Source: DRGV01 sp018903055 [NCBI: bacterium]
GTDB lineage: Bacteria > UBP18 > UBA7526
Reading direction: 5' to 3'
DNA: 6,507 nucleotides
NCBI GenBank assembly: GCA_018903055.1
Contig: JAHIPW010000143.1
Coordinates: forward strand, 1 to 6,507
Below the pieces are notes generated by a model. It was given only the letters and a program-made list of their open reading frames with translations. It did no database searches and was not told the DNA's origin. The translations under genes and the position numbers were made by a program. Numbering within the stretch: position 1 is the first letter of the stretch; each line of letters begins with the position of its first letter. Shown here in pieces: positions 1,638-6,273 of this stretch.

Positions 1638-1696
1638 CCCCGAGAAATCCGAAGGATTTCCGGGATTAAGTACCCGCAATTCTTTGAATTGCAGGG
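1638..1696. repeat. Double triloop-hairpin element, intergenic copy
   Basis: The perfect stem GAAATCC-GAA-GGATTTC (1644-1660) is joined by a CGGG...CCCG linker (1661-1676) to a second perfect stem GCAATTC-TTT-GAATTGC (1676-1692), bounded by CCCC and AGGG. Read on the minus strand it aligns end to end with 5087-5151 inside trmD: both have CCCT, a hairpin with loop AAA, a GGGTACTT linker, a second hairpin, then GGGG. Stem bases differ between copies while pairing is kept. Confidence 0.75.
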
Positions 1697-1728
1697 CATA
1701 ATCAAGGGTAGCACTTTTGTGATGCCCT
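1693..1728 (-). repeat. Stem-loop at the 3' end of the exported-protein gene
   Basis: AGGGCAT (1693-1699) pairs perfectly with ATGCCCT (1722-1728), a 7-bp stem overlapping the TAG stop of the upstream gene (1727-1729). A smaller CAC-TTTT-GTG hairpin sits inside the loop. No U-run follows on the minus strand, so an mRNA 3'-end stabiliser or part of the repeat cluster is as likely as a terminator. Confidence 0.4.
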
Positions 1729-3234: not shown

Positions 3235-3255
3235 AAGATATACCCGTTTTTCGTC

Positions 3256-3354
3256 ATACGTTGAAGGGTTACGCTACTTGTTTCGTCTTGCGTTGTTCGG
3301 CTGCGTCTTTCCACGAGAAACGTTTGACGATTACCGTAACGAGCTGCGCAACCG
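3256..3354. repeat. MITE-like element, short copy (A)
   Basis: The left end ATACGTTGAAGGGTTACGCT and the right end CGAGCTGCGCAACCG carry imperfect terminal inverted repeats: GGTTACGCTACTTGTT at 3267-3282 against GGTTGCGCAGCTCGTT read in reverse from 3353, 12 of 16 matching. Bases 3255-3284 match the reverse complement of 6181-6210 at 26 of 30 positions, so this and 6001-6209 are inverted copies of one family. It has no coding capacity. Confidence 0.65.
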
Positions 3355-4416: not shown

Positions 4417-4442
4417 TGTTGCTCACTTTCCCACTCTCAAGT

Positions 4443-4508
4443 CTCCGAACTCTCCCTCGGGGACCTCGAGTCCCCTCGGGACGAGAGGCGAACTATAAAC
4501 TCCGAACT
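4443..4508. repeat. Hairpin element flanked by 9-bp direct repeats
   Basis: CTCCGAACT occurs at 4443-4451 and again at 4500-4508, the second copy overlapping the trmD stop codon. Between them is a hairpin GGGGAC-CTCGA-GTCCCC (4459-4475) with further CTCG/CGAG pairing possible. The layout looks like a small palindromic insertion bounded by a duplicated sequence. Confidence 0.5.
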
Positions 4509-5385
4509 ACTTGCCTTCAATCTCTCTCAACAGTCTCTTATCCTCACTGGATAACTTAATCCCTTGTAATAAATCCGGTCTCTTCTCTAGGGTCATTCTC
4601 AAGGCCTCCTTCCTCCTCCAGCTGGCAATTCTTTTGTGGTCCCCGCTTAAAAGTATCTTAGGGACTCTCATCCCCCGACACTCCTCTGGCCTGGTATAGT
4701 GGGGATAGTCCAGGAGGCCAGAATAGAAGGAATCGCAAATGATAGACTCTTCTTTCCCCAAGACCCCGGGAATGAGGCGCACTAAGGCATCGATGACTAC
4801 CAATGAGGCCAATTCCCCGCCAGTGAGGACATAATCACCGATGGATATTTCATCCGTTACTATTCTCTTCACCCTCTCATCTATCCCTTCATAGTGACCA
4901 CAGATAAATATGAGGTGTTTCTCTTTTGCCATCCTCTTTGCCATCCCCTGATCAAACCTTTTCCCCTGAGGAGTCAATAATATGATACGCTGCAGGTCAC
5001 AAGCCACAGGCTTCAGGCCTTTATCTTTACTTGGAGCTTGAAGCTTGCCCGCCCCGCTTCGCTTGGCGAGGCCGGGGGAGCTTGCACCCTGAAATTTCAA
5101 AGAAATTTCGGGTACTTTAGTCCCTGAAATTGCTCTGCAATTTCTAGGGGGAGCTTGTTTTATGAGCGATTCCACGGCTTCAAAGATGGGTTCCGGCTTC
5201 AAAACCATTCCGGCTCCTCCCCCATAGGAAGCATCGTCTGCTGTCCTATGCTTATTATGGGTAAAGGAGCGGATATTTAGAACATCTATTTTTACTAATC
5301 CTTTCTCCTGGGCCCTTTTCAGTATGCTTTCTTTTAAGGGTCCTTTAACCATATCAGGAAATAGAGTCAGGATGTCGATTCTCAC
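4507..5385 (-). CDS. trmD: tRNA (guanine-N1)-methyltransferase with an in-frame insertion
   Basis: TrmD methylates G37 of tRNAs that read CUN, CCN and CGG, using S-adenosylmethionine, and prevents +1 frameshifting. It is a trefoil-knot (SPOUT) dimer. Family motifs are [12 protein letters not shown] (1-12), [19 protein letters not shown] (54-72), [11 protein letters not shown] (136-146), [12 protein letters not shown] (161-172) and [12 protein letters not shown] (181-192). The catalytic pair R203 ([10 protein letters not shown]) and D218 ([17 protein letters not shown]) aligns with E. coli R154 and D169. At 292 residues it is about 40-50 longer than usual, and both catalytic residues are offset by +49 from E. 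coli. The extra sequence lies at about residues 77-132 and is built of palindromic repeats that remain in frame. The GTG start overlaps the rimM stop (GTGA), with GGAG 5 nt upstream. Confidence 0.97.
5052..5077. repeat. GC-rich triloop hairpin inside trmD
   Basis: CCCCG (5052-5056) pairs with CGGGG (5073-5077). The inner CTTCGC (5057-5062) pairs with GCGAGG (5066-5071, one G-T pair) around the 3-nt loop TTG, with one bulged C at 5072. This gives an 11-bp stem of the same triloop design as its neighbours. Confidence 0.6.
5087..5151. repeat. Double triloop-hairpin element, copy inside trmD
   Basis: GAAATTTC-AAA-GAAATTTC (5091-5109) and GAAATTGC-TCT-GCAATTTC (5126-5144) are both perfect 8-bp stems with 3-nt loops. 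They are joined by GGGTACTTTAGTCCC and bounded by CCCT and AGGGGG. The 11-mer GGGGGAGCTTG at 5074-5084 recurs at 5147-5157, so the unit is flanked by direct repeats. It is the inverted counterpart of 1638-1696. Confidence 0.75.
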
Positions 5386-6000: not shown

Positions 6001-6209
6001 CGGTTACGAAGCTCGTTTCGTCTATCAGTGATTGGTAGCCGACTATAGAAAACAGAGATCGGTTGTTAGAAAACAGAAATCAGTAGGGAAAACAGAGAAC
6101 AGAAAACTGGAAAAACTGATTTCAGATTTCCGATTTCACTACCGTTTTCCGATTTCCATCAACTGTTTTCTGATTTCAATGAAACGAGTCGCGCAACCCT
6201 TCAACGTAT
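6001..6209. repeat. MITE-like element, long copy (B), in the khpA-rimM gap
   Basis: Terminal inverted repeats GGTTACGAAGCTCGTTTC (6002-6019) and GAAACGAGTCGCGCAACC (6181-6198) match at 14 of 18 positions when one is reversed. The interior, about 6050-6178, is a degenerate mix of the words GAAAACAG and GAAATC on one side and their complements on the other. Exact pairs are GAAATCAGT/ACTGATTTC (6076-6084 with 6115-6123) and AGAAAACAG/CTGTTTTCT (6068-6076 with 6163-6171). It is the inverted relative of 3256-3354 and carries no gene. Confidence 0.65.
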
Positions 6210-6273
6210 AAGGAAGCCTTTCGCTAACGCTCAAGAACCTTGTTTTCTCACTTCGTTTGAAAATAACGTTTTC

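What the first reader, a model, noticed from the sequence alone, without database searches (positions are those of the whole stretch)
4990..5157. In-frame palindromic repeat insertion inside the essential gene trmD
Seen: TrmD is 292 residues, and its catalytic R203 and D218 are shifted +49 relative to E. coli R154 and D169. The extra residues (about 77-132) are encoded by stacked palindromes and stay in frame, while all flanking motifs are intact. Known: Rickettsia palindromic elements insert in frame into housekeeping proteins and are tolerated in surface positions. Inference: this genome has an analogous repeat family able to add a peptide to a core enzyme, here in the loop between the PEPIFEAVE helix and the first SPOUT strand. 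The alternative is excision at RNA or protein level.
Basis: partly seen in the sequence, partly recalled or inferred. Interest (0 to 1): 0.82.

Follow-up and report, generated by a model that had tools for sequence, protein, structure and literature searches.

The report
Nested palindromic repeats inside essential trmD
In an uncultured bacterial lineage, short repeats that normally litter the spaces between genes have been spliced in frame into surface loops of essential enzymes such as TrmD, so the proteins appear to carry pieces of junk DNA as extra floppy loops.

Summary
Confirmed and extended. The trmD loop (window 4990-5169, residues 73-132) has 60 residues; the shortest relative (G002, record titled UBP18_UBA7526) has 7. 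It is composite: a degenerate 7-bp repeat array, also present in G004 from another genus, holding two palindromes, E1 (66 bp, double hairpin, 5085-5150) and E2 (30 bp, 5048-5077). G004 is an exact empty site for both, without target duplication. At least 16 E1 places and 18 E2 copies were found in the lineage's six held genomes, some in frame in cobT, fmt, cbiB, leuS, ribE and a gltD-like gene. E1's hairpins covary (99% paired in 12 copies). E2 is stop-free in all six frames; four are used. On 498 sampled ORFs, 22 of 37 internal in-frame inserts are hairpin-rich, against 1 of 22 in control lineages. Frame-breaking inserts were few and near ORF ends. AlphaFold predicts an intact TrmD core with a disordered loop (82-128). 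It works like Rickettsia palindromic elements but fails that family's length test, and homology was not tested. Translation is inferred; no RNA or protein data exist.

The parts
4507..5385 (-). trmD, 292 aa, tRNA (guanine37-N1)-methyltransferase with an expanded loop
   Evidence: NCBIfam NF000648/TIGR00088 and Pfam PF01746; the listed Foldseek hits are TrmD structures
4990..5169 (-). variable loop, residues 73-132; 180 nt here, 84 in G004, 72 in G005, 39 in G003, 21 in G002
5151..5157 (-). heptamer CAAGCTC, left edge of the repeat array
5085..5150 (-). E1, 66-bp double-hairpin palindromic element, residues 79-101
   Evidence: exact extra 66 bp against G004; member of the E1 model set; covariation
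5078..5084 (-). heptamer CAAGCTC between the two palindromes
5048..5077 (-). E2, 30-bp GC-rich palindrome, stop-free in all six frames, residues 103-113
   Evidence: exact extra 30 bp against G004; 18 copies in 5 of 6 genomes; frames
4990..5047 (-). rest of the 7-bp array (CAAGCTT CAAGCTC ... CCTGAAG CCTGTGG CTTGTGA CCTGCAG; units picked by eye), shared with G004
1638..1698 (+). spacer copy of E1 in the same window
   Evidence: noticed, used in the model, matched by it

Best explanation
The trmD segment is a two-layer repeat insertion. Layer 1 is a short 7-bp repeat array, of the kind that fills the spacers of these genomes, in a loop between the PEPIFEAVE helix and the next strand; relative to the 21-nt loop of G002 it adds 63 nt (shown). 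Layer 2 is two short palindromic elements, E1 and E2, placed exactly between heptamers, 66 and 30 bp, both multiples of three (shown by the G004 empty site; the direction, gain rather than loss, is inferred). The elements are dispersed repeats that recur in spacers and, in frame, in other housekeeping genes (shown). Selection keeps insertions that preserve frame, lack stops and fall in permissive loops, so the product is translated as a disordered loop on a working enzyme (inferred from frame bias, open frames and the structure model). The insertion machinery is unknown. Precise joining without target duplication and conserved hairpin pairing suggest a hairpin-recognising or template-switching mechanism acting on single strands (inference, weak). 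The array appears to have moved between genera by recombination of a tract of about 150 bp (inferred).
For: Empty site: G000 equals G004 plus exactly 66 and 30 bp, with the same heptamers in both. Around it 147 shared columns hold 2 mismatches, against 83-88% identity in the aligned pieces of the rest; nominal binomial P 1e-9 to 2e-6, the tract being chosen after the fact. Dispersed copies: E1 at least 14 places in G000, 1 in G001, 1 in G003 (150 of the 160-232 first-look candidates were scored in these genomes); E2 18 copies. In-frame hosts with Pfam support: cobT, cbiB, leuS, gltD-like, ribE and fmt of G001. In trmD only one of E1's six frames is open and it is the one used. 22 of 37 in-frame inserts fold better than 95% of gene segments (about 2 expected), 21 of 34 at 70% identity or more; controls 1 of 22. 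Structure: pLDDT below 50 at 82-128.
Against: No RNA, protein or long-read data. E1 is nearly confined to G000 and was not found in G002, G004 or G005. Apparent flanking duplications in other inserts are modest (mean slide 2.3 against 0.79; 8 of 37 at 4 or more), so different families may use different mechanisms. No mobility gene was identified. E1 length modulo 3 is only suggestive: 3 of 3 in genes are multiples of 3, 5 of 12 elsewhere. The trmD loop is length-variable elsewhere too (5-7 aa inserts in Dehalococcoidia/Chloroflexi), so part of the pattern is ordinary tolerance. 15 of the 37 inserts are not hairpin-rich. A frame-breaking insert lies 52 residues before the C-end of a TPR/YfiO-like ORF.
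Confidence: 0.85

Rival explanations
1. The segment is removed at RNA level or skipped by the ribosome (like the untranslated palindromic elements of Magnusiomyces mitochondria) or spliced from the protein, so TrmD has normal length.
For: Strong hairpins sit in the coding sequence; translational bypassing of palindromic elements is reported for a yeast mitochondrion (passage in PMC6649704).
Against: Removed segments need keep neither frame nor open codons. Of 5 net inserts of 12 nt or more that break frame, three lie within the first 42 residues of stop-to-stop ORFs, one within the last 30 and one 52 residues before the end, so nearly all internal inserts found keep frame. Only one of six E1 frames is open in trmD and it is used. 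No Rfam hit in the window; NCBIfam and Pfam report only TrmD families.
Confidence: 0.06
2. The segment is an ancient, functional TrmD loop that relatives lost, under protein-level selection.
For: G004 keeps a near-identical 99-bp part of it although the rest of the gene diverged.
Against: Relatives have other arrays at the same place (CAAGCTC, AAATCAA, AAAGTCC, or none). The identity is at DNA level and includes flanking bases, as after recombination. Predicted disordered.
Confidence: 0.04
3. The heptamer arrays and palindromes are produced locally by replication slippage and hairpin template switching, without any mobile element.
For: Arrays at homologous loops can differ by unit sequence as if rewritten in place (LeuRS site 1: GTTCACC in G005, GATCACC in G001). 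Slippage of 7-nt units is a proposed cause of heptamer abundance in bacteria (passages in PMC4692102, PMC4679880).
Against: Explains the arrays but not E2: nearly the same 30 bp lies within unlike flanks in 5 genomes and is exactly absent in G004 trmD.
Confidence: 0.15
4. Assembly or binning artefact of a metagenome genome.
For: All six held genomes of the lineage are drafts of 53-93% completeness; the four whose records were found are titled MAG.
Against: Separate assemblies share the trmD array (G000, G004) and the leuS E2 (G003, G004); inserts preserve frame in many genes.
Confidence: 0.03

Closest known systems
Rickettsia palindromic elements (RPE)
   Same: Dispersed palindromes in spacers and in frame within unrelated conserved proteins (passages in PMC2229807 and PMC10969869).
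   Different: RPEs are given as 105-146 or about 150 bp with a conserved peptide; here 30 and 61-67 bp, E2 read in four frames, nested in 7-bp arrays, in another phylum. No sequence comparison with RPEs was made.
Heptamer repeats in bacterial spacers (Calothrix, Xanthomonas, Nostoc; TAACTGA in Beggiatoaceae)
   Same: 7-bp tandem units, largely between genes; 24 sets within or overlapping the coding regions of 25 proteins are reported for one Beggiatoaceae genome (passages in PMC4692102, PMC4679880).
   Different: Here several unlike unit sequences per genome, at the same loops of housekeeping enzymes across genera, holding nested palindromes.
Mitochondrial hairpin elements and yeast GC clusters (including the in-frame cluster of VAR1)
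   Same: Short hairpin elements, also in double-hairpin form, differing by complementary substitutions and occurring in genes (passages in PMC2800124; the VAR1 cluster is recalled).
   Different: Organelle genomes; no shared sequence was tested.
REP/REPIN elements with RAYT transposase
   Same: 20-40 bp palindromes (abstract start of PMC3733652 in the listing).
   Different: No Y1 transposase match in any of the 6 draft genomes; copies inside genes.

Membership tests
Rickettsia palindromic elements | in-frame copies in unrelated conserved proteins plus spacer copies | tested here: met
   E1 in trmD, cobT, fmt; E2 in trmD, cbiB, leuS, ribE, gltD-like; others in spacers
Rickettsia palindromic elements | element length about 105-150 bp | tested here: not met
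   30 bp and 61-67 bp
Rickettsia palindromic elements | sequence homology to an RPE family | not tested
   no RPE sequence was fetched
REP/REPIN | RAYT (Y1 transposase) in the genome | tested here: not met
   0 of 6 genomes, all drafts of 53-93% completeness; control rings in 5 of 14
MITE | target site duplication | tested here: inconclusive
   none for E1/E2 at trmD; 5-8 bp for some other inserts, mean slide 2.3 against 0.79
STRR-like heptamer arrays (name recalled) | tandem 7-bp units over-represented in spacers | tested here: met
   lag-7 identity 0.30-0.35 in DNA outside ORFs of 100 aa or more, 0.27 inside, with echoes at 14 and 21, in 4 genomes
Self-splicing intron or intein | known intron fold or intein domain | tested here: not met
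   no Rfam match in the window; NCBIfam and Pfam report only TrmD families
Translational bypass element (byp) | segment absent from the protein | not testable with these tools
   needs proteomics; frame and stop evidence speaks against it

The most novel reading that the evidence does not exclude
A two-tier invasion of a bacterial proteome: 7-bp (and 8-bp) arrays colonise permissive protein loops and then act as landing pads for several families of very short palindromes whose in-gene lengths (30, 63, 66 bp) and open frames suit coding DNA, joined precisely by an unknown activity without target duplication and without a detected RAYT transposase, and passed between genera by recombination.
Probability: 0.35. 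Interest if true: 0.87.

Novelty: new variant of a known kind. Interest (0 to 1): 0.74.

Why it matters
Coding palindromes are described from Rickettsia (passages) and Wolbachia (a reference title). Here they appear in a candidate phylum, shorter, of several families, nested in heptamer arrays, with an exact empty site, and in several essential genes. It offers a natural experiment on how proteins accept random DNA, and a tractable case for finding how such tiny palindromes move. It also warns that extra loops in proteins from metagenomes may be repeat DNA rather than functional domains.

Tried and rejected
An 11-mer repeat count failed as a test of repeat origin: inserts 0.35 against control 0.30, 1 of 37 above the 95th percentile; lag-7 identity around inserts was 0.28 against 0.27. 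I replaced it by folding energy, stems and empty sites. Longest perfect stem alone was weaker: 10 of 37 at p 0.05 or less.

RAYT/Y1 transposase as mover: 0 of 6 genomes. Viral carriers: the exact E2 pattern had 0 matches in viral contigs. E1 model hits outside the phylum (G010, G012, G014; E 0.001-0.007, one each, of 25 such genomes) I take as chance. In one search one of the 21 genomes with the heptamer pattern (G045) hit the reversed control more often (51 against 7), so it is no evidence.

Rows dropped: 51 insert rows became 42 on non-shadow ORFs and 37 distinct places; pairs with masked residues were skipped. Three of the 37 come from pairs below 70% identity, one of them among the 22 hairpin-rich. 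Of 18 E2 copies six are in genes, two lie near a start codon and are ambiguous (G001:C43, G002:C2), and ten lie in no supported gene (the one in L197 lies upstream of an ORF). The G000 sample includes stretches chosen because they hold repeats, so rates for G000 are biased upward; G001, G003 and G004 samples mix contigs with hits and contigs taken by number. A tblastn inside one search was run by mistake with an antisense frame; I repeated the fmt comparison properly. A first count of the identical tract (165 columns, used) was wrong; the recount is 147.

Literature: ten searches gave no listing that, by title and abstract start, describes coding palindromes in this phylum; listings were capped and only open-licence PMC papers are held. 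Seen as passages only: PMC2229807, PMC10969869, PMC4692102, PMC6649704, PMC2800124, PMC4679880. Ogata 2000 and 2002 are known from reference lists; the VAR1 cluster is recalled.

Full report
What was checked. The ORF at 4507-5385 (minus strand) is a complete 292-aa TrmD. Its loop between the PEPIFEAVE helix and the next strand spans residues 73-132, window 5169-4990. Relatives of the same family carry 28 (G004), 24 (G005), 13 (G003) and 7 (G002) residues there. The same-genus genome G001 (53% complete) gave no trmD match. TrmD matched in 58 of 60 searched genomes. Of 40 other TrmDs aligned, 34 have 8 or fewer residues in the columns of residues 83-128; the rest have 11 to 25, two of them from this lineage.

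Anatomy. The 180-nt loop is 84 nt that include degenerate 7-bp repeats, plus E1 (66 bp) and E2 (30 bp); relative to the 21-nt loop of G002 the part without palindromes adds 63 nt, as many as nine heptamers. Without E1 and E2 the best period is 7 (shuffle p 0.0002). G004, of another genus, has that array and neither palindrome: the alignment shows two clean gaps, each between CAAGCTC/CAAGCTT heptamers, with no duplicated target. Over 147 shared columns the two differ at 2, while the aligned pieces of the rest of the locus are 83-88% identical. The nominal binomial P is 1e-9 to 2e-6; the tract was chosen after seeing it. I read this as recombination between genera, with the palindromes gained (or lost) on one side afterwards.

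The elements are dispersed. E2 (30 bp) has 18 copies in 5 of 6 phylum genomes: G000 11, G001 2, G003 3, G004 1, G002 1, G005 0, with a control pattern at 0. By eye its flanks are mostly 7-bp repeats of unlike sequence (CAAGCTC, CAATTTC, CAAAACT, CTGTTTT, GAACTCC), though not at ribE, gatB or the G001:C43 copy. Two sequence variants of it are stop-free in all six frames; the six in-gene copies (trmD, cbiB, leuS of G003 and of G004, gltD-like, ribE) use all three forward phases and one reverse phase. E1 has 14 places in G000, 1 in G001, 1 in G003 and none found in G002, G004 or G005; only 150 of the 160-232 first-look candidates were scored in five of the six genomes, so these are lower bounds. 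Nine of the 16 places were in the model's own alignment; seven are new. On 12 copies counted once, 283 of 286 pair cells are standard pairs and 12 of 24 pairs change on both sides. The tool count on both strands gives 98.8% paired against 21-62% for slid controls. Both counts use an alignment fitted to the structure. So the pairing is kept while letters change. In-gene E1 copies are 66 (trmD), 63 (cobT) and 63 (fmt of G001) bp; of 12 other measured copies 5 are multiples of 3 and 7 are not. One G000 place (C159) was not measured there.

Other genes. Aligning orthologues shows the same kind of loop in other enzymes. cobT: E1 in G000, absent in G002, G004 and G005 (G003 did not enter that alignment). 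cbiB: in G000 a GAACTCC array, another palindrome (E6) and E2; at the same loop G003-G005 share a TTTACGG array and G002 lacks it; a second loop holds an 8-bp array in G000 only. leuS: three loops with 7- or 8-bp arrays that mostly differ between genomes, though G001 and G005 share one at site 3; E2 is in G003 and G004 but not in G001, G002 or G005, and no close leuS was found in G000. fmt: the G001 protein has 36 residues, E1 included, that the G000 protein lacks; G000 has an LKPQASG-type repeat in the next loop. These hosts are confirmed by Pfam, with the insert inside or next to a domain match.

Scale. I sampled 386, 311, 220 and 178 kb of G003, G004, G000 and G001. Among 498 non-shadow ORFs there are 37 distinct internal in-frame inserts of 5 aa or more; 261 pairs at 70-97% identity give 74,627 aligned residues. 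Of the 37, 22 fold better than 95% of length-matched gene segments, about 2 being expected; among the 34 from pairs at 70% identity or more it is 21. Hosts among the 37 include an ABC transporter ATPase, a MutM-like glycosylase, a Dfp-like flavoprotein, an amino acid kinase with ACT domains, a class IV aminotransferase, a lipid A acyltransferase and a polysaccharide deacetylase; the MutM-like insert is not hairpin-rich. The peptide VNPAPARRSG occurs as a 30-bp insert in two unrelated genes of two genomes. Control neighbourhoods: Lacticaseibacillus 1 insert per 34,966 aligned residues, Tepidanaerobacteraceae 1 per 29,081, Dehalococcoidia and Chloroflexi 20 per 136,201, Jeotgalibacillus 0 per 6,206; hairpin-rich 1 of 22 in all. 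The controls are the trmD neighbourhood only, so the comparison of rates is rough; five phylum loci at that neighbourhood give 4 inserts per 17,173 residues, all in the trmD loop, 1 of them hairpin-rich.

Frame. A tblastn search for split matches found 12 rows; 6 have a net insert of 12 nt or more, 5 of them not a multiple of 3. Three of these five split the first 20-42 residues of stop-to-stop ORFs and one the last 30, where spacer is likely; one lies 52 residues before the end of a YfiO/TPR-like ORF, inside its family match. The other six rows are net shifts of -20 to +1 nt. The 37 inserts are in frame by construction; the point is that frame-breaking partners were looked for separately and are few.

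Protein. AlphaFold on 41 aligned TrmDs gives mean pLDDT 77, with 82-128 below 50; most of the rest is confident, but residues 51-60 average 55. Foldseek's listed matches are TrmD structures (best E 2.5e-25; 8byh_B target TM 0.83). So the segment is predicted to be a disordered excursion from a TrmD fold.

Genome background. DNA outside long ORFs has a clear 7-bp periodicity (lag 7: 0.30-0.35 against 0.27 inside) with echoes at 14 and 21, and an 8-bp signal, strongest in G001 and G004. One heptamer array, (AAATCCG)3 with up to 2 mismatches, occurs in 21 of 193 genomes searched, 5 of 6 within the lineage, so such arrays are not unique to it.

Interpretation. The best account is a selfish-repeat invasion filtered by frame: a 7-bp array in a permissive loop, with palindromes nested in it, translated as a disordered loop. 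Shown: the modules, the empty site, the dispersed copies, the in-frame locations, the covariation. Inferred: translation, direction, mechanism, recombination. Compared with Rickettsia palindromic elements it works alike, but length, reading-frame use and nesting differ and no homology was tested, so I do not file it there.

Noticed in passing
window 1638-1698: A second E1 copy lies in the spacer after the ComM-like gene (name recalled) of this same window.
   Followed up: yes
window, about 6208-6262: Spacer copy of another hairpin family (core GAACCTTGTT; 31 sites in the sampled DNA) whose stem letters differ between copies but look complementary by eye; it also sits in frame in ORFs of G001 and G004.
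   Followed up: partly
window, about 4440-4506: GAACTCC-type heptamers with a CTCGGGGACCTCGAGTCCCCTCGGG palindrome (E6) in the spacer between trmD and the rplS-like ORF (name recalled); the same palindrome is inside cbiB of this genome.
   Followed up: partly
window 3250-3284 and 6181-6215: A 35-nt inverted pair (86% complementary) in two spacers, perhaps one more dispersed family.
   Followed up: no
L301, L302, L303, L304 (leuS): Three loops of leucyl-tRNA synthetase hold 7- or 8-bp arrays; at site 1 the four genomes read have different unit sequences, two of them differing by one base.
   Followed up: partly
L246:19331-19999 (minus): A lipid A acyltransferase homologue with a tandem pair of 84-bp palindromic inserts, 56 extra residues in frame.
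   Followed up: partly
sampled DNA of G003 and G004, e.g. L185, L204: 75 ACCCCGC(A/C)CC sites in all sampled DNA, a number of them paired as ACCCCGCACC...GGTGCGGGGT, looking like a small terminal-inverted-repeat family.
   Followed up: no
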